Assembly (NCBI RefSeq): GCF_003480315.1
Contig: NZ_QUIV01000031.1
Location: 832 to 36,531, forward strand
Length of the DNA stretch: 35,700 nucleotides
Origin: Clostridium sp. AM33-3
GTDB lineage: Bacteria; Bacillota; Clostridia; Lachnospirales; Lachnospiraceae
Direction: 5' to 3'
Shown here: in pieces, positions 1 to 28,498 of the stretch
How positions within the stretch are numbered: position 1 is the first letter of the stretch
Layout: each line of letters begins with the position of its first letter
Notes under the pieces: generated by a model
Told to the model about the DNA's origin: nothing
Seen by the model: the letters and a program-made list of their open reading frames with translations, nothing else
Database searches by the model: none
Translations under genes and position numbers: made by a program

Positions 1-1
1 A

Positions 2-286
2 ACAGGCGGCGGAGCGCAAGAGGTACAAAATTCCACTCAGTGCCGCGTTTCTTGTATGGTGTGCCCGGAACTTCGGACCTTCGATGGTTATTACTCAAAT
101 TTTTATTATTTTGAAAGCCGCGCCCGGCCGCCGAGTGTTCTACGGGATATTCTGAAAGGTGAGCCTAGACACTGGCGATACGCAGAAAGCGCATTCCTCC
201 CGGAACCGGTGCAGCGGTTTTATTATAGCGCCGGGAATGAAAAAATGCAACGCTACAGCAGCTTTTTTATGGCATCCATGAGATAG
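2..286 (+). CDS. 3' end of an unidentified gene (partial)
   Basis: This frame is open from the left edge of the window to a TAG at 284-286, and an intrinsic-terminator-like hairpin follows about 28 bases later, which supports a real plus-strand gene ending here. The visible C-terminus is rich in Tyr, Phe and Arg, with no motif I recognise. The first in-frame ATG (56) has no ribosome binding site, so the true start is probably outside the window. A competing reading in the third frame is open only to about 170 and looks hydrophobic, so the coding frame is not certain. Confidence 0.3.
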   Translation, partial: TGGGAQEVQNSTQCRVSCMVCPELRTFDGYYSNFYYFESRARPPSVLRDILKGEPRHWRYAESAFLPEPVQRFYYSAGNEKMQRYSSFFMASMR

Positions 287-313
287 AAGAACCATGCCAG
301 CATCCTGCATCAC

Positions 314-356
314 CCCGCCTTCTGATAGTAGTATATGCAGAAAGCGGGATTCTTTC
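314..356 (+). terminator. Probable intrinsic terminator of the upstream gene
   Basis: CCCGCCTTCTG (314-324) pairs with CAGAAAGCGGG (338-348) with one mismatch and a 13-base loop, followed by a weak T-rich stretch (attctttcc). It lies between the stop codon at 286 and the promoter of the next gene. Confidence 0.45.
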
Positions 357-357
357 C

Positions 358-386
358 GTGACAGAATGGGAACAGACTGCTATAAT
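358..386 (+). promoter_or_regulatory. Promoter of the threonine aldolase gene
   Basis: GTGACA (358-363), a 17-base spacer and TATAAT (381-386) form a near-consensus vegetative promoter. The -10 box is preceded by TGC, an extended -10. Transcription would begin near 393, giving a leader of about 43 bases before the ATG at 436. Confidence 0.65.
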
Positions 387-435
387 AGGGAAAAACGAAA
401 CGCATTTTATGCGGAGAAGAGGAGAGTCAAACATC

Positions 436-1470
436 ATGATTCGTTTACACAATGATTACAACCGCGGCGCCTGTGCCAAAATTTTAGAGAAGCTGGCAGA
501 GACTAATGCCGAAAGCTATGATGGATACGGAGAGGATACCTGGTGTGAAAAGGCAGCGGACCTGATACGGAAAAAATGCAAAGCTCCGGAAGCAGCTGTT
601 CATTTCTTCCCAGGTGCAACCCAGGCAAACTTTATTGTCCATGCAGCAGCGTTAAGCCCGATCCAGAGTGTCATCTGCCCGGATTCCGGCCATGTGTATG
701 CCCATGAAGCTGGTTCGATTGAGAACACCGGACACAAGCTGGTTCCGCTTCCATCTGCAGACGGAACCATTACAGCAGAACAGATCCGCAAGGCAGCCGC
801 AGCTTATTATGAGGCAGGAGAACCGAACTATCTCTGTGAGCCGAAGCTGGTTTACATTTCCTTCCCGACCGAGTGGGGAACGCTGTATTCCGAGCAGGAT
901 CTGAAGGATATCCGCAAGGTATGCGATGAGTACGGTATGTATCTGTTTGTGGACGGTGCACGCCTGGGCTATGGACTTGGTTCTGCGAAGAATGATGTAA
1001 CGCTGGAAAAACTGGCAGAACTGACAGATGTATTTTATATCGGCGGAACGAAATGCGGCGCTTTGTTTGGTGAGGCACTGGTCATCACAAACAGCGGACT
1101 GGCACGGAAATTCCGCACCTATATGAAACAGAATGGTGCGGTGCTGGCAAAAGGCTGGCTTCTGGGTCTGCAGTTCTGTGCGCTTCTGGAGGATGACACT
1201 TATGAGAAGATGACGGCCCGGGCCGATGCCTACGCCATGGAAATTAAGGCAGCCTTCAAAGAAAAAGGTATCCAGGAATTCGTGGACAGCTACACAAACC
1301 AGCAGTTCGTGATCGTGACGGACGAACAGGCAGAGAAGCTGGCGAAGGAGTATACTTTTGAGCAGGAGCGGACACTGGACGATGGAAGAAGGGTCGTACG
1401 GTTCTGCACCAGCTGGGCCACCACGGAAGCGGAGAAAGACCAGTTAATTGGGGATATCCGGGCACTATAG
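436..1470 (+). CDS. Low-specificity threonine aldolase / beta-eliminating lyase family protein
   Basis: This is a PLP-dependent fold-type I enzyme of 344 residues, expected to cleave L-threonine or L-allo-threonine to glycine and acetaldehyde in the cytoplasm. The N-terminus MIRLHNDYNRGA is the family's substrate-binding start. FVDGARLGYG (near residues 171-180) carries the PLP-ring Asp, and YIGGTKCGALFGE carries the PLP-binding Lys at about 206. Length matches the family. I chose ATG 436 because a purine-rich GGAGAAGAGGAGAG precedes it and family similarity begins there; the longer reading from 358 overlaps the promoter. The gene stands alone, with its own promoter and a terminator at 1530. 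The exact substrate within the family (threonine, phenylserine or another beta-hydroxy amino acid) cannot be read from sequence. Confidence 0.9.
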   Translation: MIRLHNDYNRGACAKILEKLAETNAESYDGYGEDTWCEKAADLIRKKCKAPEAAVHFFPGATQANFIVHAAALSPIQSVICPDSGHVYAHEAGSIENTGHKLVPLPSADGTITAEQIRKAAAAYYEAGEPNYLCEPKLVYISFPTEWGTLYSEQDLKDIRKVCDEYGMYLFVDGARLGYGLGSAKNDVTLEKLAELTDVFYIGGTKCGALFGEALVITNSGLARKFRTYMKQNGAVLAKGWLLGLQFCALLEDDTYEKMTARADAYAMEIKAAFKEKGIQEFVDSYTNQQFVIVTDEQAEKLAKEYTFEQERTLDDGRRVVRFCTSWATTEAEKDQLIGDIRAL

Positions 1471-1492
1471 AATTTCCTGGATCTGGGAATCA

Positions 1493-1501
1493 TGCTATAA
1501 T
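1493..1501 (+). promoter_or_regulatory. Possible extended -10 promoter just after the aldolase gene
   Basis: TGC-TATAAT (1493-1501) is a perfect extended -10 box, but no good -35 box sits 17 bases upstream. A transcript from here would start near 1508 and meet the terminator at 1530-1571, giving an RNA of about 60 bases. It may be the relic of a promoter for a gene now lost downstream. Confidence 0.35.
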
Positions 1502-1529
1502 GGAAACAGTATAGGAATAAGCTTGAAGA

Positions 1530-1571
1530 AAAACAGGTACTGATCGGATGACGGTCAGTACCTGTTTTTTT
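1530..1571 (+). terminator. Strong intrinsic terminator
   Basis: AAACAGGTACTGATC (1531-1545) pairs with GGTCAGTACCTGTTT (1553-1567) through a 7-base loop and is followed by a run of T ending at 1571. It ends transcription of the aldolase gene. The group II intron remnant begins three bases after the T run. Confidence 0.85.
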
Positions 1572-1573
1572 GA

Positions 1574-2276
1574 GTGCGCCTAGCGGCGCACGTTTCTAAC
1601 GGGTTAAAGTCCCAAATCCGCCCGGTAGTGGAAAGGATATAGCCGAAAGCAAGGGTGTCCATCGTGAGATGGAATCTGAAGGAAGCTGGATGTGAGAAAC
1701 ATACTAACTCATGGGCAAATCTCTGGTCTGACGAACAGAAATCTCATATAAGGTTATGCATGAGGACAAGGCTGCTCATCAAGTCGAAGTCCAATAACTA
1801 CACGGAATCATGCATGATAAATGAGGCAGATGGATGGAGAGGAAGAAACGTGTGGTACCTAGGGAGGTCTGTGCGGTACGCCTTGAAAGAGGTAACCATT
1901 GCATAAAGCAATGCTGAATGCACAGAAGTCAGCAGAGGTCATAGTAGCCGAGAGGTGAAGGACCGAATCAGTAGGAGTTTTGAGTATGACCGAGAAAGGA
2001 GGAATGACCGTCTATGGCAGAAAACATTGAAAACAATGGCTGTTCGCAAAGAGATAATGCGGAACATGAAGGGTATGTGAAAGCGTCTAGGTCATTCAAT
2101 CGGATATGGAAAGAAAGAGACAGTGCACAGCCGAGACTTTTGGAAGCGATACTGTATAAAGACAACTTTAACAGAGCGTATAAGAGAGTTAAGGCAAACA
2201 AGGGAGCGCCAGGAATTGATGGCATGACCATTGAGGAGGCTCTTCCATATCTAAAGGAACATCAACAAGAGTTATA
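1574..2276 (+). mobile_element. 5' remnant of a group II intron (catalytic RNA part and start of its ORF)
   Basis: GTGCGCC at 1574 fits the GUGYG 5' end of bacterial group II introns, and 1574-2013 reads like domain I to IV RNA (long structured non-coding stretch containing tracts such as aacgggttaaagtccc and ggatatagccgaaagc). An intron-encoded reverse transcriptase begins at 2014 but breaks off near 2274, so most of the ORF and the 3' intron domains V and VI are missing. The element therefore cannot splice or move by itself. It sits directly behind a terminator hairpin, the typical target of group IIC introns; class assignment from this is inference. Confidence 0.8.
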
Positions 2277-2286
2277 TGCCATTTGA
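2014..2286 (+). pseudogene. ltrA: Truncated group II intron reverse transcriptase/maturase (N-terminal 90 residues)
   Basis: The start is ATG 2014 behind GAAAGGAGG. Residues from about 45 (LLEAILYKDNFNRAYKRV), then NKGAPGIDGMTIEEALPYL, are the hallmark N-terminal (RT0/RT1) region of intron-encoded proteins, which normally run to over 400 residues with an YADD catalytic box and a maturase domain. Here similarity stops after KEHQQEL and the frame closes four codons later (TGA 2284-2286). All catalytic motifs are absent, so the product is inactive. The lost part lies at a junction near 2274, after which unrelated promoter sequence of the next gene begins. Confidence 0.88.
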
Positions 2287-2326
2287 TGCGATTAACAAAA
2301 TTGATAATAATTTTCATTATAAAGCA

Positions 2327-2356
2327 TTGTATTAATACCTGTACATATGATATACT
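2327..2356 (+). promoter_or_regulatory. Promoter of the surface-protein gene
   Basis: TTGTAT (2327-2332), an 18-base spacer and TATACT (2351-2356) preceded by TGA (extended -10). Transcription would start near 2363, giving a leader of about 44 bases that includes a small hairpin, GTTAG/CTAAC, at about 2365-2380. Confidence 0.55.
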
Positions 2357-2406
2357 CCTATAAGTTAGCTAAGACTAACCAATACTGAAGGAAAAGGAGT
2401 TCTGAT

Positions 2407-5400
2407 GTGAAAGTAATTAATGTATTGTCTGCGGCTGCTTGCGCTGCGCTCATAGCGGCGTCTTCTGCAGGGACCGCAATGGCTGCGGAAACCGTAACTG
2501 GGGGGGGCATGGAAGACGTCTTGGAGTTATGTAATGCCAGATGGCTCTCGTGCGAAAAATGTCTGGGTGCAAACACCTGATGGAAAATGGTATCATATGG
2601 ATCAGGATGGTATTATGCAGACCGGATGGTTTTATGATCAGAATGGAAAATGGTACTACCTGAAACAAGATGGTTCTATGGCAACAGGGTGGCTTCTCAT
2701 TGGACAGCGCTATTATTATCTCAATCCATCAGGAGATATGGTTGCCAATGGGAAGACACCTGATGGCTATACAGTAAATGCGGATGGTGCCTGGTGTAAT
2801 CCAGATGGAAGCGCAATTGTAGTTAATAACAGTAATTCTGGAACCGCAACCACAAGGAGCTCTGGAAGCTCTTCTGGTGGAGGAGGTTCAAGTAGCAGTT
2901 CATCCAATAACGGATCTAACAGCACAGATAAAACTGATCCAGAACAGCCAAACAAACCGGAACAGCCTGATAAACCAGAAAATCCAGAGCAGCCAGATAA
3001 ACCAGACCAGCCAGAAAATCCTACTGTTCTGCACGGATCGGCAGCAGTGGGCTATGGTTATTATGCAAAGGTGGCTGTGACTGTAAATGATGATGGCACC
3101 ATTCTTTCTGTGGAGGATGATGGAACGGTTCCGAAAGAGGATGGACTCAGTCCTGCATTTTGGAATAAAGCCTTGCAGTTTTTTGATACCGTAGTTGGCA
3201 AGAATCTCTCTGATTTAAAGGCAATGAAGACAACTCCTGGCGGCTCAAAGGAAGAGAAGGCGGACGCAGTTTCTGGAGCTACCTATTCTTCTAACGCAAT
3301 CCGTCTTGCAGTATTAGATGCTTTGGGAGAAAGCGAAGATAGCGATGATTTTGTGATAAACGATGAAAATGTTTTGACAGAGTACACAGGTGATTCCGAG
3401 TTGGTTGTTATTCCGGATGGTATTCAGGCGATTGATGAATACTCCTTCTCCGGAAAAGAAAATGTTAAGAAGATTGTAATCCCTGCCTCCGTTACATACA
3501 TCAATTCCAGCGCTTTTGAGAATTGTTCCAGTCTGAATGATTTTGAAGTTGCAGAAGATAATGAAGAGTATTATACAGAAGATGGAGTAATCTACGACAA
3601 AAAGGCAGATTCACAGCTTGTGCTTTTCCCATGTGGACGAGATGGCGCTTATTCGGTACCTGATACAGTTAAGACGATCGGTGATGGGGCATTTTATACT
3701 TCTCGTTTGGAAAGCCTTAAAATCCCAGCTTCTGTTGAAACAATTGGCAGTGGCATTGTAGACTATTGCTCTTTCCTTACTACTATTACCGTATCTGAAG
3801 ATAATGCGATATACTCAAGTTCGGATGGGATTGTTTATGATAAGAGTCAAACACGTCTTGTAATTGTACCTCCGGGGATTAGTGGCGAGCATACGATACC
3901 GAATACAGTAACAGAATTAGAAGATTTTGCATTTTATAGTTGCTATAAACTGACAAAGATCAATCTACCTGGAAAGCTGAAGACTCTTCCGATGGGAGTA
4001 TTTGCCGGTTGCTCTGGATTAAAGACTATACAGCTGCCGAATGGTCTTGAAACAATTGAGGATCGCGCATTTATCGGCTGCACATCTTTAGAGAGTATTA
4101 CGATTCCAGAAGCTTTGACAAATTTTGGAGCCTATGTATTTACACAGTGTACAAGTTTGCAGAGTATCAAAGTTGATGATTTGAATTTTGAATTTAACTC
4201 CAAAAAGGGAGTTCTGTTTAATGCATTCGGAGATACTTTATATGCTTATCCAACAGGAAAATCAGGAGATTATGAGATTCCATCTGGAACAGTAATAATT
4301 AAACAGGGTGCTTTCTTCTCTGCTACGGATTTAGGGACAGTAACCGTTCCGGATTCTGTAACAGATATTGAACCAATTGCATTTGTAATGCCTGGTAGTG
4401 ATATGCGTCCGGCTAATTTGAAGCTTAAGGGAAGTGCTGGATCAGCGGCTGAAGAGCATGCAACTATATATGGTATTGAATTCGAAACAGTCGGTGGCAG
4501 CCAACAGCCTGTAATTCCGGAAAAAGGACTTACTGAAAAAATTGATGGTGTAAGCTATCGTACATTTGATGGTAAAACAGCCCGTGTAGTTTCTGTTGAT
4601 GACGATGTAAAAGAGATTATTATCCCGGACAACGTCACAATTCAAGGGATGGAAGTTGTTGTCAATCAGATTAATGTACAGGCATTTGCGGGATCTGCAG
4701 TTGAAACGATTGTAGTTGGTGACAATGTTGAAAAAATTATGGATTTGGCGTTTATGGAATGCTCTAAACTACGTTCAGTAACCTTAGGAGCTAAGGTTTC
4801 AAAATGCGATTATTCAGTATTTAATGCTTGTTATGCACTTGAAGAAATAAGTGTATCATCTGAAAATGCAACATTCTTTGATAACGACGGAGTGCTGTAT
4901 GAGGATATAGATGAGGAAAATTGGACTCTTGTACATTATCCAAGTGCTCGTGCCGATGAAGAATATGAAATACTGAATGGTACGACAAGTGTTGCAGACA
5001 GCGCTTTCGAAAAAGCTAAAAACTTAAAACTCGTAACTTTCCCGGAGGGCGTTCACGAAATTGGTGATGACGCATTCTACGGACACAATGCGGAGCTTGT
5101 TATTGCAGCTCCTTCTGGCAGTGCAGCAGAAAGTTATGCGGAAGAGAACGAAATCACCTTCAAATCTACGGATGAAGATGAAAAGGTTGAGTCTGTATTA
5201 AAATCAAACGCTGATGTAGTAGCAGACGTTATCCCAGAAGTAGTCGAAAAGGTTGAGGATACCAAGGATTCTGAAAATGATGGCATCACCTCTAATACAG
5301 AAGAAATCAACAAAAACGATTCAAAATCCGAGGACGAATCAAACAAGGATGGCTCCGATAAGGTAGAGGATATCGATAAAGATGAATCTGGTAAGTCCGA

Positions 5401-5623
5401 AGAAAGCAAAGACGAAGCATCAGAGGATGAAAAGTCCGAAGAAAGCAAAGACGAAGCATCAGAGGATGAGAAGTCCGAAGCGAGCGGAGACGAAGTTTCA
5501 GAGGATAAGAAGTCTGATGAGAGTGAAGACGAAGTTTCAGAGGATGAGAAGTCTGGCGAAAATGGAGACGAAAGTTCAGATGAGGAAATCTCTGACGAGC
5601 AGGAAGAAAGCACAGAAGCTTAA
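2407..5623 (+). CDS. Secreted cell-wall-binding, FMN-binding, BspA-like leucine-rich-repeat protein; frame broken at a G8 tract
   Basis: AAGGAG (2394-2399) lies 7 bases before GTG 2407 (the nearby ATG 2405 runs into TGA). This frame encodes a clear signal peptide with an AMA-AE cleavage site near residue 27, then reaches G8 (2500-2507) and stops at 2578. The body is open in the next frame to TAA 5623. With G7 the two join to give ...TVTGGAWKTSWSYVMPDG... Counting from Met 2534, the body has three Trp/Tyr/Gly cell-wall-binding repeats (1-90), a Ser/Gly and PEQPDKP linker (95-165), an FMN-binding domain (about 168-265) with SGATYSS whose Thr near 250 is the flavinylation site type, LRR_5 repeats (about 270-880) and an acidic tail with 13-residue repeats. 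No LPXTG anchor is present; wall attachment would be through the Trp repeats. Likely role: adhesion plus extracellular redox (inference). An internal ATG at 2534 has GGAG 7 bases upstream but would give an unsecreted form. Confidence 0.85.
2500..2507 (+). repeat. Homopolymeric G8 tract, candidate phase-variation switch
   Basis: Eight consecutive G lie exactly between the signal-peptide coding part and the mature part of the surface protein. As written, the signal-peptide frame terminates at 2578 after 57 codons. Removing one G (or adding two) fuses both parts in frame. The position, early in a surface-protein gene, is that of contingency tracts in other bacteria. A base-count error in the assembly is the main alternative. 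Confidence 0.6.
5393..5587 (+). repeat. Five tandem 39-bp repeats coding an acidic tail
   Basis: Five in-frame copies of a 39-base unit begin at 5393, 5432, 5471, 5510 and 5549. The first two encode KSEESKDEASEDE identically; the others diverge progressively (KSEASGDEVSEDK, KSDESEDEVSEDE, KSGENGDESSDEE). The gradient suggests recent duplication at the 5' end of the array and a copy number able to change by recombination. Confidence 0.85.
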
Positions 5624-5636
5624 GGTTTTATGACAA

Positions 5637-5687
5637 AAGAAATACCGTTTCATGGTCTTAGGATCATGGAACGGTATTTCTTTTTTT
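5637..5687. terminator. Intrinsic terminator between convergent genes
   Basis: GAAATACCGTTTCATGGTC (5639-5657) pairs with GATCATGGAACGGTATTTC (5662-5680) with few mismatches, followed by T7. An A-rich stretch on the left side could also serve the minus-strand MATE gene whose stop is at 5724. Confidence 0.85.
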
Positions 5688-5723
5688 GATAAGCATTTAA
5701 AATTTCATTGTGCGTTCAAATGC

Positions 5724-7043
5724 CTAAATAAAGCGATACAAGTACTTTCTGTGCATCCAGATGGACAGCAGCAGTGTCACAAACTCTGCCACAGGAATAG
5801 CCAGCCATGCCCCATTGACCCCGAAGAACTGCGGAAGCACCAGCAGTGAGATCACGGTGAAGAGCAGAGTACGGCAAAAGGAGATGATGGCAGATGATTT
5901 TCCGTCGGACAGGGCGGTGAAAAAGCCGGAGGAGGCAATGTTAAAGCCGCTGAATAAAAAGTTATAGGCAAAGATCCCAAATCCGGTCACGGCCAGTGCA
6001 TGAGTTTTCGGATCATCCGTGAAGATAGTTACAATACCGGTCGAAAGATAAACGGCGGCAAAGGCTATGATCACAGAGGAAATGCTGACAAAACGGAAGG
6101 AAATACGGTAAATGCTTTTCAGCTCCTTCCGGTTTCCGGCACCGTACTGATATCCCACGATCGGGCTGGTTCCAATGGAAAAGCCCAGGTAAAAGGCATT
6201 GAACAGAAACTGTCCGTACAGCAGGATCGTGATGGCAGCTACACCATTCGGACCTGCCAGACGCATCAGGATGATGTTGAATAGAAAGGTGATCACGGCA
6301 TTGGAAAACTGGTTTACCATTTCAGAGGAACCGTTGTAGCAGGCCTGGATCAGTTCTTTTGTGTGCATGGTGAAGCGAGTCAGATGAAGAGCATGCTTCT
6401 GATTCAGAAAAAAGACCAGTCCTGCCAGGGCCGGTACCATCTGGCCAAGTCCGGTAGCCAGGGCAGCTCCGGCAATGCCAAGATCGCAGGATACGATAAG
6501 TACATAGTCCAGTCCCGCGTTGATGATCCCGGCGATCATGGTGAGGAAGAGTCCGAGGTGCGGCGCTCCGGCAGTTACCAGATAGGACTGGAACAGAGTC
6601 TGGAGCATGCAGGCCGGAGCAAAGCCCATGAGGATGCTGAGGTAGGTGCGGCAGTCTGCTAACAGCAGATCGTTGGCACCGAGTGCCCGGCTGATGAAAT
6701 CCGGAAAAAGCAGGGACAGGATGGACATCAGCAGACTTAACAGAAAGCCAGTCAGAGTAAAAAGGGAGAGACATTCTTTTGCCAGCTGTATTTTCTCCTC
6801 GCCCAGATACCGGCTGATGACTGCATTGCCGCCAGTGGCCAGCATGGTGCCAATGGCAATGACGATGCTGGCCACCGGATAGACGATGTTTAAGGAGGAC
6901 AGGGCATTACTGCCAATAAAGCGGGAGATGAAAATGCCATCCACGATGGTGTAGAGGGACATAAACATCATCATAATGATAGAAGGAAATGTAAACTTCA
7001 GCAGACTCCAGGGAGAAAAATGCTGGCTGATGGATGTACTCAT
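5724..7043 (-). CDS. MATE-family multidrug/cation antiporter (MepA-like)
   Basis: A 439-residue polytopic membrane protein with about twelve hydrophobic segments in two MatE halves, the normal family size. FTFPSIIMMMFMSLYTIVDGIFIS near the N-terminus and the ATGGNAVISRYLGE stretch are typical of MATE exporters, which expel cationic drugs or metabolites using Na+ or H+ gradients. I place the start at ATG 7043, not the TTG at 7049, because AAGGAG on the minus strand (7058-7053) is 9 bases from the ATG and only 3 from the TTG. The gene is divergent from a MerR-type regulator, and its promoter has MerR geometry, so drug-induced expression is likely (inference). The natural substrate is unknown. 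Confidence 0.9.
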   Translation of the reverse strand: MSTSISQHFSPWSLLKFTFPSIIMMMFMSLYTIVDGIFISRFIGSNALSSLNIVYPVASIVIAIGTMLATGGNAVISRYLGEEKIQLAKECLSLFTLTGFLLSLLMSILSLLFPDFISRALGANDLLLADCRTYLSILMGFAPACMLQTLFQSYLVTAGAPHLGLFLTMIAGIINAGLDYVLIVSCDLGIAGAALATGLGQMVPALAGLVFFLNQKHALHLTRFTMHTKELIQACYNGSSEMVNQFSNAVITFLFNIILMRLAGPNGVAAITILLYGQFLFNAFYLGFSIGTSPIVGYQYGAGNRKELKSIYRISFRFVSISSVIIAFAAVYLSTGIVTIFTDDPKTHALAVTGFGIFAYNFLFSGFNIASSGFFTALSDGKSSAIISFCRTLLFTVISLLVLPQFFGVNGAWLAIPVAEFVTLLLSIWMHRKYLYRFI

Positions 7044-24904: not shown

Positions 24905-27900
24905 ATGATGCTTTACGAAAACACAAGAACTGTTTACGATCTGGTGCACAACGCGGCGGCAGAGCATGGAGACCGTGTTTTTTTGCAATATGAAGAAAAT
25001 GGAATTATTTTCCGTGTAACCTACAAAGAATTCGCATGTGAGTGTGATGCTATTGCTGCCTGGGCCAGGGAAAAGCGTGCGCAGGTGGGACACAAGTTAA
25101 AGGTTGGTATTCTGGGAGTCAGCAGTCATCATTATCTGGCCGTACTGCTTGGCGTGATGAGCGGAGGCGATACCGGCATTCCGCTGGATGTCCAGCTCAA
25201 CGCACAAAAGCTGGCAGACTGCTTAAACCGTTCCGATGTGGACGTGCTGTTTTACGACTGGGCTTTCCATCCGCTGACCGAGGAAGTGAAGGATAACTGC
25301 CCAACGGTAGTGGAGTATATTTCCCTGCAGCATGGAAAGCATGTGAACTGCTCCGATAAGATCCTAAAAGCCTATGAGGGGCAGCATGTGGAGTCTGACG
25401 CAAAGGCCGATGAGTGTGCCATGATCCTGTTTACCTCCGGGACCACAGGACGCGGCAAGGGCGTGATGCTGTCCAATGGAAACCTCATGGACAACAATTT
25501 CTGCACCACAGACAACAACCATCCGGAGCAGGAAATTTACTTAAATGTCCTGCCGATTCATCATGTGTTCTGCTTAAATGGAGATGTGTTTACCGTTATG
25601 CGTTATGGAGGAATCCTCTGTTTGAACCGTGATATGAAGAAGCTGGCAGAGCATATATTACTGTTTGAACCGACGGTCATCCGCATGGTTCCGATGATGG
25701 CAAAGGCACTTTACAACCGCATTGCTATCTTAAACCGGCAGCGCCCGGAGATGCCCATCCGCAAGGTAAAAGAGCAGGTGCTTGGTACCAGGCTTCACAA
25801 GATCATCAGCGGCGGCGGATACCTGGCACCGGATCTGGCAGCCAATTACCAGCGCCTCGGTATTGCTATTGCCCAGGGCTACGGCATGTCGGAGTGTTCC
25901 CCGAAAATTTCTTCTCCGGACTGGACAAGACCGGATAAGATTGCGTCCGTGGGGCGTATTGTAGACCGCTGTGAGGTGCGTATCGTGGACGGCGAGATCC
26001 AGGTCAAGAGTCCGTCTGTCATGATGGGATATTACAAGGAACCGGACAAGACTGCGGAGGCCATCACACCGGATGGCTGGCTTTGTACGGGAGATATCGG
26101 CCATGTGGACGAGGAGGGCTTTCTGTACCTGACCGGTCGGAAAAAGAACCTCATTATCTTAAGCAACGGTGAGAATGTGGCACCTGAGGAGCTGGAAAAT
26201 CTCTTTGAGGATGAGCGTCTGATCGAGGATATTCTGGTGTACGGCGAGGACGATACGATCTGTGCGGAGATATACCCGAATTTTAAATATGCGGAAGCTG
26301 CAAATATTGCCGATATTGAGAGCACGGTGGCTCAGATTATCAAAAAACACAATGAGGAACTGCCGACGTTCAAGCGCATTCTGCGCAGCAGGATAAGAGA
26401 AGTTCCTTTTGCAAAAACCTCTTCCAAAAAGATTATCCGCAGCCAGTATCTGGAGGGAAAACAGAAAGAAGAGCAGGAGGAGAAGCGTTTCCGTATGCCG
26501 GAAAATGAGTTTCAGAATCAGATTTATGACTGCATTGCCGCTGTACTGGGGCACCGTCGTTTTGGCATTGATACAGAGCTCTACGAGGCAGGACTGGATT
26601 CCCTTGGAAGCGTGCTGTTACTCACGGATCTGTACCAGATCTTAAAGGTTTCCATGACCCTGGATGACCTCTTACAGCATGCTTCGGTGCTGAAGCTGGA
26701 AGAATTTGCCCGGGAGGGAGCCGGCGCAGAGCAGGTGGATCACACAGTGCGGCAGGTCTATCCGTTAACCAATCTGCAGCTTTATTTTGCCTATGTCATG
26801 CGTGGAAATACTACGGCAAATCTGCCGTTTCTCTATAAACTGGACGAACGGACGGATCTGCGCCGCTTAAAGTTTGCGGTGGAGCAGCTTTTTGAGGTGC
26901 ACCCGGAGCTAAAGGCCATCATCCAGATGGCAGAGGGCCGTTACCAGATCATCCGTGATGATAAGAGAAAGATTGACATTCCGATCGTGAGATTAAGCAA
27001 TGTCCAGTGGGAGGAAACGAGAAAAGGATTGCTGTATCCGTACCTTTACGGAGAGGGTGAGAACCTGTTCCATATCGGTATTTATGAGACGGATTCCGCC
27101 AATTATTTCTTCTTTGATATTGCCCATATTATGGGGGACGGTATGACCATGAACGTGCTGTTTGAGGACTTAAACCAGCTTTATCTCGGTAGGGCTGTGG
27201 AGCCGGAAACCTACACCTTCTACGAATATATCCTGGATGAAAAGGATCGGGATGCGAGAGGACTCCGGACAAAGAATGAGACGTATTTCCGGGGCCTGAT
27301 GAAGGACTTTAAGATTCGTAAGAGCATCCTCACCCGCAAGGACTGCTACAGCCTGGAGCATGGCGTGGATGCTGATTTAAAGGGACGTTTTACGAGCCTG
27401 AACCGCCGTAATGTGAGCGCATTTTGTAAAAAGCTTGGCGTTTCGGAAAATGTATTTTTCCTGACGGCCTATAACTTAAGCATTGGCCTGTTCAGCAACG
27501 AAAAGGATACCGTTTCCTCCTCCATTCACAGCGGAAGAACCGACAGCCGCTGGAACCGCCTGGCAGGACCTTTGTTCCTTACCTATTTCTTCCGGAACAA
27601 AGAAGGTGTGGATCAGACCGTGCCGGAGCTTTTGAAGACGAATGCAACGCAGATCATGGATACCATGCGCTGCTACATATCGAACCTGCACGCAGATGAG
27701 ATGTTCTTCCAGTACCAGGGGGATATCTTAAATATCGATACCGTGGGAGGGTATCCGGCAGAACGCCAGCGCATGCAGCTGGATTCTTTGCCGTTCCATC
27801 TGCAGGTATTTACTGATGCGAAGGGCTATTACTATGAGCTGCGCTACTGGGAGAACCGGTTTGACACCCGCCAGCTTCATGATTTCCTGACGGTGATGGA

Positions 27901-28498
27901 GTCTCTGATGGATGCTATGCAGGAGGAGACACTGGTGCGCCGTTTAAGCCGCCGCCTGCCGGACCGTCTGTTTCCGCTGCATTACACCATTACTGTGGGA
28001 GAACTGAATCAGGCAGCGAAAGGCCAGCTGGTGACCGGCGTGGATGGAAAAGAACCGGTTAAAGTTTATGTGTTTGATGAAAACTGCAGGAAGAAGCCGT
28101 TTGGTGCCTGGGGAGAGCTGTATGTGATGGACTGTAAACCGGAGCAGGTGCTGGATGAGATCACCAATCCATATGGGCCTGGAAAACTTTACGATAGCGG
28201 GCGGACCGCGAGAATTCTGCCGGACGGTTCCCTGGATTTTTTGGAGCAGGGTGGCAGGACCATCATGCAGGAAGGTCTGACTGGTCGTCAGTTCCACGAT
28301 CTGTATCAGATCGAAACGGCTTTAAAACAGGTGCCGGGTGTGGAGGAAGCCGCCGCCTATGTGCGTTATGCTGATGGCAACAAGCTGGTACTGACAGCAG
28401 AAGTGAAGGGCACTATGGGGCAGAATGCTGATGTACTGAAAGCACAGGTGGAGGCGCAGTGCGGCAAGGCTCATGTACCGGATATTCTCTGGAGATGA
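24905..28498 (+). CDS. NRPS-like enzyme: adenylation, carrier, condensation-like and partial second adenylation regions
   Basis: A 1,197-residue cytoplasmic protein. Residues 1-about 520 are an AMP-forming acyl/aminoacyl ligase: LFTSGTTGRGKG (near 175), YGMSECSP (near 326), TGDIG and TGRKKNLIILSNGENVAPEELE, and the catalytic Lys in TSSKKIIR near 510. It looks most like acyl-activating ligases. Residues about 540-610 are a carrier with GLDSLGS, the Ser near 565 receiving phosphopantetheine. Residues about 620-1010 are a condensation-like domain with HIMGDG (HxxxDG, His near 741). From about 1050 the tail reads like the end of another adenylation domain (VYVFDENCRKKPFGAWGELYV, PDGSLDFLEQGGR, QIETALKQVPGVEEAA) without its ATP core. 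There is no thioesterase, reductase or nearby phosphopantetheinyl transferase. GGAGG lies 6 bases before ATG 24905; the next ATG (24908) is also possible. Product unknown; an N-acyl amine or amide is possible. Confidence 0.85.
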   Translation: MMLYENTRTVYDLVHNAAAEHGDRVFLQYEENGIIFRVTYKEFACECDAIAAWAREKRAQVGHKLKVGILGVSSHHYLAVLLGVMSGGDTGIPLDVQLNAQKLADCLNRSDVDVLFYDWAFHPLTEEVKDNCPTVVEYISLQHGKHVNCSDKILKAYEGQHVESDAKADECAMILFTSGTTGRGKGVMLSNGNLMDNNFCTTDNNHPEQEIYLNVLPIHHVFCLNGDVFTVMRYGGILCLNRDMKKLAEHILLFEPTVIRMVPMMAKALYNRIAILNRQRPEMPIRKVKEQVLGTRLHKIISGGGYLAPDLAANYQRLGIAIAQGYGMSECSPKISSPDWTRPDKIASVGRIVDRCEVRIVDGEIQVKSPSVMMGYYKEPDKTAEAITPDGWLCTGDIGHVDEEGFLYLTGRKKNLIILSNGENVAPEELENLFEDERLIEDILVYGEDDTICAEIYPNFKYAEAANIADIESTVAQIIKKHNEELPTFKRILRSRIREVPFAKTSSKKIIRSQYLEGKQKEEQEEKRFRMPENEFQNQIYDCIAAVLGHRRFGIDTELYEAGLDSLGSVLLLTDLYQILKVSMTLDDLLQHASVLKLEEFAREGAGAEQVDHTVRQVYPLTNLQLYFAYVMRGNTTANLPFLYKLDERTDLRRLKFAVEQLFEVHPELKAIIQMAEGRYQIIRDDKRKIDIPIVRLSNVQWEETRKGLLYPYLYGEGENLFHIGIYETDSANYFFFDIAHIMGDGMTMNVLFEDLNQLYLGRAVEPETYTFYEYILDEKDRDARGLRTKNETYFRGLMKDFKIRKSILTRKDCYSLEHGVDADLKGRFTSLNRRNVSAFCKKLGVSENVFFLTAYNLSIGLFSNEKDTVSSSIHSGRTDSRWNRLAGPLFLTYFFRNKEGVDQTVPELLKTNATQIMDTMRCYISNLHADEMFFQYQGDILNIDTVGGYPAERQRMQLDSLPFHLQVFTDAKGYYYELRYWENRFDTRQLHDFLTVMESLMDAMQEETLVRRLSRRLPDRLFPLHYTITVGELNQAAKGQLVTGVDGKEPVKVYVFDENCRKKPFGAWGELYVMDCKPEQVLDEITNPYGPGKLYDSGRTARILPDGSLDFLEQGGRTIMQEGLTGRQFHDLYQIETALKQVPGVEEAAAYVRYADGNKLVLTAEVKGTMGQNADVLKAQVEAQCGKAHVPDILWR

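What the first reader, a model, noticed from the sequence alone, without database searches (positions are those of the whole stretch)
2407..2580. G8 tract separates signal peptide and body of a large surface protein: candidate phase-variable switch
A well-formed start (AAGGAG, GTG 2407) and signal peptide run into G8 at 2500-2507 and then stop at 2578. The 1,029-codon body is open in the next frame right through the tract. G7 would give one continuous secreted protein. Homopolymer slippage that switches surface proteins is well known in Proteobacteria but little described in gut Clostridia. As written, the gene is OFF.
Basis: partly seen in the sequence, partly recalled or inferred. Interest (0 to 1): 0.75.

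Follow-up and report, generated by a model that had tools for sequence, protein, structure and literature searches.

The report
Slipping G-tract switches surface protein export
A run of eight Gs between the export signal and the body of a large surface protein of a gut bacterium (family Lachnospiraceae) puts the two out of frame here, while near-identical relatives have them in frame, so the gene looks like a natural on/off switch; similar arrangements turn up in other species of the family.

Summary
Confirmed: G8 at 2500-2507 separates a 31-residue signal-peptide segment (GTG 2407; stop 2578) from a 1,041-residue body open in another frame (2498-5623). It is the window's only G or C run of six or more. 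The body has choline-binding repeats, an FMN-binding domain and BspA-type leucine-rich repeats. Relatives show both states: of 13 close protein clusters, 9 begin with this signal peptide in frame and 4 at the body's internal ATG; all 13 bodies are long and intact. One body-only cluster matches an in-frame one at 987 of 988 residues. On a tree the states need 4 changes, 3 forced. The short out-of-frame product was found on other contigs, once one glycine longer. Assembly error or old decay therefore fits poorly. Four secreted-protein genes in two other genomes of the family show signal peptide, poly-G and out-of-frame body. Best reading: a slippage contingency locus controlling export. No reads or relatives' DNA were available, so switching within a population is not shown. 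The mechanism is known; I found no report of it in this family.

The parts
1658..1963 (+). 5' part of a group II intron (domains D1-D4); no 3' part found
   Evidence: Rfam RF02001 at 1658-1854 and RF01998 at 1893-1963, the only two hits at gathering threshold in 1-6000
2014..2286 (+). ORF of 90 aa just upstream of the surface gene, probably the cut-short start of an intron-encoded protein
   Evidence: ORF list; no Pfam hit; identity inferred from position and recall
2394..2399 (+). ribosome-binding site AAGGAG
   Evidence: read directly; 7-base spacer to GTG 2407
2407..2580 (+). signal-peptide ORF, 57 aa plus stop; 31 residues precede the tract
   Evidence: translation; same product in P0123 and P0124
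2500..2507 (+). G8 tract, the proposed slippage site
2523..2536 (+). GGAG plus internal ATG 2534, possible start of a non-exported body
   Evidence: read directly; 4 of 13 relative clusters begin at this ATG
2498..5623 (+). body of the surface protein, open frame of 1,041 residues
2621..2794 (+). choline-binding (cell-wall-binding) repeats
   Evidence: PF19127, PF01473, PF19085, best stretches at body residues 42-99
3050..3325 (+). FMN-binding domain with SGAT motif at 3272-3283
   Evidence: PF04205 E 6.6e-9; motif position
3893..4180 (+). best-scoring stretch of BspA-type leucine-rich repeats (five stretches in all)
   Evidence: PF13306 E 1e-70
5638..5681 (+). intrinsic terminator-like hairpin after the gene
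   Evidence: consensus scan

Best explanation
A contingency locus. Replication slippage in a G-tract between the export signal and the body of a cell-wall-bound, probably flavin-carrying BspA-type surface protein sets the reading frame and so decides whether the protein is exported. SHOWN: anatomy; relatives in both frame states (one state read from where the gene call starts); intact bodies in both; repeated state changes; a second length of the glycine run in the out-of-frame product. INFERRED: that the cause is slippage, that it is reversible and frequent, that selection keeps the tract, that in the out-of-frame state translation ends at 57 residues or starts at the internal ATG to give a non-exported form, and that export serves adhesion or surface redox work.
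For: Only G/C run of six or more in the window against 12.8 expected. 9 of 13 close clusters read SP-TVT-GG-AWK in frame; 4 of 13 begin at the internal ATG. P0013 (body only) and P0010 (in frame) agree at 987 of 988 residues. States need 4 changes on the tree, 3 forced by starred branches; this window's nearest relative is in frame. Out-of-frame product on other contigs with GGG (12 members) and GGGG (1 member). Same anatomy in secreted proteins of two other genomes of the family: L097 and L108 (G032), L132 and L139 (G063); L132's body is also BspA-type LRR in an open frame of 1,964 residues, L108's (GH43) of 2,276. Tracts of nine or more G span or break a gene with G on the coding strand in 42 of 95 cases, against 12 of 95 for the reverse reading.
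Against: No reads, and no DNA for the relatives, so their tract lengths are inferred from protein; the in-frame glycines could be other codons. The body-only clusters could in part reflect gene-caller choice or contig ends. 0 of 9 in-frame clusters have an extra glycine, and the search with the short product returned only 2 proteins, neither in the third frame. A tract this short slips more slowly than the longer tracts of classic loci (recalled). The states are neither more nor less clustered on the tree than shuffled labels (251 and 248 of 500 shuffles as low): as expected of a fast character, but not proof of one. The strand bias is weak in G063 (12 against 5 of 30) and G017 (6 against 4 of 14). 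The other genomes are single assemblies, so tract errors there cannot be excluded.
Confidence: 0.74

Rival explanations
1. Mutational hot spot without selection: the tract slips now and then and knocks the gene out; out-of-frame copies are short-lived losses, not a switch. (Rivals here are not all exclusive of each other or of the best explanation.)
For: In-frame clusters outnumber body-only ones 9 to 4; a tract of this size is modest; no longer in-frame tract was seen.
Against: Unique G/C run in a window that otherwise has none of six or more; bodies of body-only clusters intact; the same junction is used by other secreted-protein genes elsewhere in the family.
Confidence: 0.18
2. Sequencing or assembly error in this window; the strain is really in frame.
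For: Homopolymers are error-prone; the nearest relative P0003 is in frame.
Against: The same class of out-of-frame product occurs in another cluster with 12 member sequences and in a one-glycine-longer form; 4 of 13 body clusters begin at the internal ATG.
Confidence: 0.05
3. Internal translation start: the body is normally made from ATG 2534 as a non-exported protein and the upstream ORF is a leader or separate peptide.
For: GGAG seven bases before ATG 2534; 4 of 13 clusters are called from it.
Against: 9 of 13 clusters carry an in-frame signal peptide; wall-binding repeats and an FMN domain point to export.
Confidence: 0.08
4. Programmed or transcriptional slippage lets the out-of-frame allele still make some exported protein.
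For: Slippery homopolymer directly at the frame junction.
Against: The in-frame class is the commoner one, so recoding is not needed; no stimulatory structure was tested.
Confidence: 0.05

Closest known systems
Bifidobacterium breve UCC2003 sortase-pilus G-tract switches (PMC9187656; passages seen)
   Same: Intragenic G-tract that joins or separates two ORFs, ON/OFF by slippage, surface structure, Gram-positive gut commensal
   Different: Actinobacteria (recalled); tracts of about G9-G12; pilus operons; deep sequencing proves mixed lengths, which is not shown here
5' homopolymeric tracts as a general regulatory device, with Listeria inlA as the model (PMC2831843; passages seen)
   Same: Tract near the 5' end of a surface protein gene (inlA as a leucine-rich-repeat protein: recalled); frame states with at least two independent origins
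   Different: Poly(A); the paper's main text has 0 occurrences of Clostridium or Firmicutes
Poly-G contingency loci of Campylobacter and Neisseria (search listings only)
   Same: Homopolymer tracts in surface-related genes, many tracts per genome, as in G032 and G063 (details recalled)
   Different: Proteobacteria; tracts on the whole longer than the one here (recalled)
Phase variation in Clostridioides difficile (review PMC11868660, passages; listings)
   Same: Clostridia, surface- and motility-related phenotypes
   Different: Site-specific DNA inversion, not slippage

Membership tests
Homopolymer-slippage phase-variable (contingency) gene | Homopolymer tract within the coding region or promoter whose length sets expression | tested here: met
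   G8 at the frame junction; effect on expression itself is inferred from the frames
Homopolymer-slippage phase-variable (contingency) gene | Both frame states found among close relatives, gene otherwise intact | tested here: met
   9 in frame, 4 body-only of 13; bodies intact; out-of-frame product elsewhere
Homopolymer-slippage phase-variable (contingency) gene | Several tract lengths at the site | tested here: inconclusive
   Three glycine-run classes (GG-A, GGG-M, GGGG-M) seen in protein only
Homopolymer-slippage phase-variable (contingency) gene | Mixture of lengths inside one clonal population, reversible | not testable with these tools
   No reads
Choline-binding surface protein | Signal peptide plus wall-binding repeats | tested here: met
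   PF19127, PF01473, PF19085 above cut-off; in-frame signal-peptide-like N-terminus in 9 of 13 relatives (no predictor was run). Not met in frame in the window itself
BspA-type leucine-rich-repeat protein | PF13306 repeats | tested here: met
   E 1e-70
ApbE-flavinylated extracytosolic protein | FMN-binding domain with [S/T]GA[S/T] motif | tested here: met
   PF04205 above cut-off; SGAT at 3272; motif as given in PMC8238504 (passages)
ApbE-flavinylated extracytosolic protein | Covalent FMN on the protein | not testable with these tools
   Needs protein chemistry

The most novel reading that the evidence does not exclude
Lachnospiraceae, and perhaps gut Clostridia at large, use poly-G contingency loci at the signal-peptide/body junction as a common device to switch export of large surface proteins; some species hold dozens of such tracts, a repertoire like that of Campylobacter. 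Here the switched cargo would include a wall-bound flavoprotein, so surface redox capacity itself would be bet-hedged.
Probability: 0.4. Interest if true: 0.8.

Novelty: new member of a known kind. Interest (0 to 1): 0.62.

Why it matters
Slippage switches are best known from Proteobacteria and mollicutes, with some Gram-positive cases such as B. breve pili and Listeria inlA (partly recalled). For Clostridia the passages I saw describe DNA inversion. If Lachnospiraceae, a dominant gut family, switch exported surface proteins by poly-G slippage, strain-level annotation will call live genes 'pseudogenes', and within-host surface diversity could be read from tract lengths in existing metagenome reads. 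That is testable at once.

Tried and rejected
Relatives by DNA: the genome-contig scan with the body found none, viral contigs none; the window's own genome is not held. The MATE transporter next door reached relatives of at most 69-71%, so no strain of the same species could be compared at DNA level. The nearest homologue in a held genome (L019, 49%, among 397 genomes) and P0016 (48%) have another N-terminus, without wall-binding repeats (P0016 by its listed Pfam domains, L019 by eye), so they say nothing on the tract.

A family-wide pattern (G7, two bases, TGGAAR) in 397 genomes hit 11 genomes at 13 places; the same pattern read backwards gave 8 hits, so no enrichment is claimed. I read all 13 loci (9, the 4 on the reverse strand); none is a signal-peptide/choline-binding start. 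Searching residues 1-140 of P0003 gave 167 hits, 120 listed: the same 13 clusters plus other choline-binding proteins. Of those others I read the N-termini of 21 (P0125-P0145); none has this signal peptide. My note ('other CBPs do not') says more than that.

Invertible promoter considered: the only inverted repeat reported in 1470-2620 is a terminator-like hairpin at 1529-1569, upstream of the intron remnant; rejected. Promoter-like sites over 2200-5750, both strands: 11 found against a mean of 7.5, sd 2.5, in shuffles; two weak ones (9 of 12) lie at 2283-2320 ahead of the gene; not used. FMN domain against solved structures by sequence: best E 0.17, nothing significant. No fold was predicted.

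The 'through/broken' script is loose: it called L132 and L139 'through' because of far-upstream GTG/TTG codons; read by hand, the signal peptide is in another frame than the body. That survey used 22 of 26 tracts of G032, 30 of 33 of G063, 14 of 14 of G017 and one tract each from 29 other genomes; 53 of the 95 showed no gene across the tract in the G-sense reading. In 6 of the 30 G063 loci the contig ends near the tract (5 within 21 bases, 1 at 187), which fits polymorphism or assembly trouble. In note I wrote 13 of 95 for the reverse control; the sum is 12 of 95. Searching two more loci in their genera gave no close relative with another tract length (2 of 77 genomes matched L132's body, one being its own at 100%, the other at 41%; for L108 the genus holds 1 genome).

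Full report
OBSERVATION. AAGGAG (2394-2399) precedes GTG 2407. The 31 residues before the tract end in AMA-AETVT, a typical signal-peptide end (recalled rule; no predictor was run). The short frame stops at 2578. The body frame has its last upstream stop at 2495 and is open from 2498 to 5623. G8 is the sole G or C run of six or more in 35,700 bases, where a Markov model gives 12.8; GGG is 71 of 768 Gly codons in 26 picked ORFs and the tract the only GGG-GGG of 42 Gly-Gly pairs. A terminator-like hairpin follows at 5638-5681, so the gene is probably its own unit.

THE PROTEIN. Body: choline-binding repeats (PF19127, PF01473, PF19085), FMN_bind (PF04205, E 6.6e-9) with SGAT at 3272, BspA-type LRR_5 (E 1e-70), and an acidic Ser/Asp/Glu-rich tail. 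[S/T]GA[S/T] is the ApbE flavinylation motif (PMC8238504, passages seen). It reads as a wall-bound, possibly flavin-carrying surface protein; function is inferred.

RELATIVES. The protein search scored 7,989 candidates and listed 120 of 1,207 hits; 13 are close (87-96%, P0003-P0015), each the representative of a 90% cluster whose other members I could not see. Their sources are coded lgn, ena and mgnify; I take them as metagenome or read-archive assemblies, lgn probably Logan (not stated by the tool). 9 of 13 begin MKV(I/M)NVLSAAACAALIA(A/V)SSAGTAMAAETVTGGAWKTSW in frame; 4 of 13 (P0005, P0013, P0014, P0015) begin MPDGSRAK, which is ATG 2534. The 13 bodies reach one of two related acidic C-terminal tails. 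P0013 and P0010 differ at 1 of 988 aligned residues although one is body-only and one in frame. On a tree of 14 rows (window included) plus an outgroup, the states need 4 changes, at least 3 forced by starred branches; the window (out of frame) pairs with P0003 (in frame) at 100/100. Shuffled labels do as well in about half of cases, so the states follow no clade.

THE OTHER FRAME. Searching the 57-residue product found two proteins: P0123 (57 aa, 12 member sequences, TVT-GGG-MEDV, one substitution besides the start residue) and P0124 (58 aa, 1 member, TVT-GGGG-MEDV). The first is the class of this window; the second is one codon longer in the glycine run, most simply a tract three bases longer. 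So the out-of-frame allele exists outside this assembly, and the site varies in length. No third-frame product was among the hits.

ELSEWHERE IN THE FAMILY. In 60 genomes of that family, 43 have a tract of nine or more G; the median is 1, but G063 has 33, G032 26, G017 14 and G020 13. Read by hand, L097 and L108 (G032) have AAAGGAG, ATG, a signal-peptide-like segment, G9 and a stop, with a long body in another frame (L108's body: GH43, open frame of 2,276 residues). L132 and L139 (G063) have a signal-peptide-like segment, acidic spacer, G10, stop, and a body in another frame (L132's body: BspA LRR, open frame of 1,964). L145 is in frame through its tract behind a signal-peptide-like segment; L124 is in frame through a G10. 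Across 95 tracts, 42 span or break a gene with G on the coding strand against 12 on the other (G032 14 against 1 of 22; G063 12 against 5 of 30; G017 6 against 4 of 14; 29 other genomes 10 against 2); the criterion is loose. In single assemblies tract errors cannot be excluded.

MECHANISM. Slippage changes the tract by whole bases; one length class in three joins signal and body. In the other classes translation stops soon after the signal, or starts at ATG 2534 behind GGAG and gives a body without export signal. Shown: anatomy, both states, repeated change, intact bodies. Inferred: slippage as the cause, reversibility, rate, selection, phenotype.

LITERATURE. Closest is B. breve pilus switching at intragenic G-tracts (PMC9187656, passages). 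General 5' tracts: PMC2831843 (passages). A 2025 review discusses Clostridioides difficile for promoter inversion and has no occurrence of Lachnospir, Firmicutes or Bifidobacterium (PMC11868660, passages). Searches (15 of 24 listed; 7 of 7; 1 of 1; 3 of 3; 10 of 66; 15 of 162; 8 of 259; 12 of 52) listed no title on poly-G surface switches in Lachnospiraceae; the one paper holding Lachnospiraceae, phase variation and homopolymeric together (PMC6437147, listing only) is on AB5 toxins and was not read. Lists were capped and the library is open-access only, so this is weak evidence of absence.

VERDICT. A credible slippage switch of a known kind, apparently new in this lineage.

Noticed in passing
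window 1658-2286: 5' half of a group II intron with a short ORF lies directly upstream of the surface gene; no 3' half was found by Rfam in 1-6000. The surface gene may have arrived with a rearrangement inside the intron.
   Followed up: partly
G032 (L097, L102-L121) and G063 (L122-L151): Two Lachnospiraceae genomes with 26 and 33 tracts of nine or more G, several in surface, acyltransferase-like and sugar-related genes (by eye): candidate poly-G repertoires.
   Followed up: partly
L137, L140, L146, L147, L148, L151 (G063): In 6 of 30 loci the contig ends near a poly-G tract (5 within 21 bases), as expected if the tract is polymorphic in the sample or hard to assemble.
   Followed up: partly
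L162 (G017), tract at 1502-1510 of the reverse strand: Lipoprotein-like signal ending in Cys followed at once by a G9 tract and stop, with a solute-binding-protein body (PF01547) in another frame.
   Followed up: partly
L068, L069/L138, L098: G10-G11 tracts inside sugar-epimerase-like or membrane-protein genes of Lachnospiraceae (by eye, no family search).
   Followed up: no
window 24905-28498: 1,197-residue ORF with CoA-ligase/adenylation and NRPS-like matches (all below the curated cut-offs shown).
   Followed up: no
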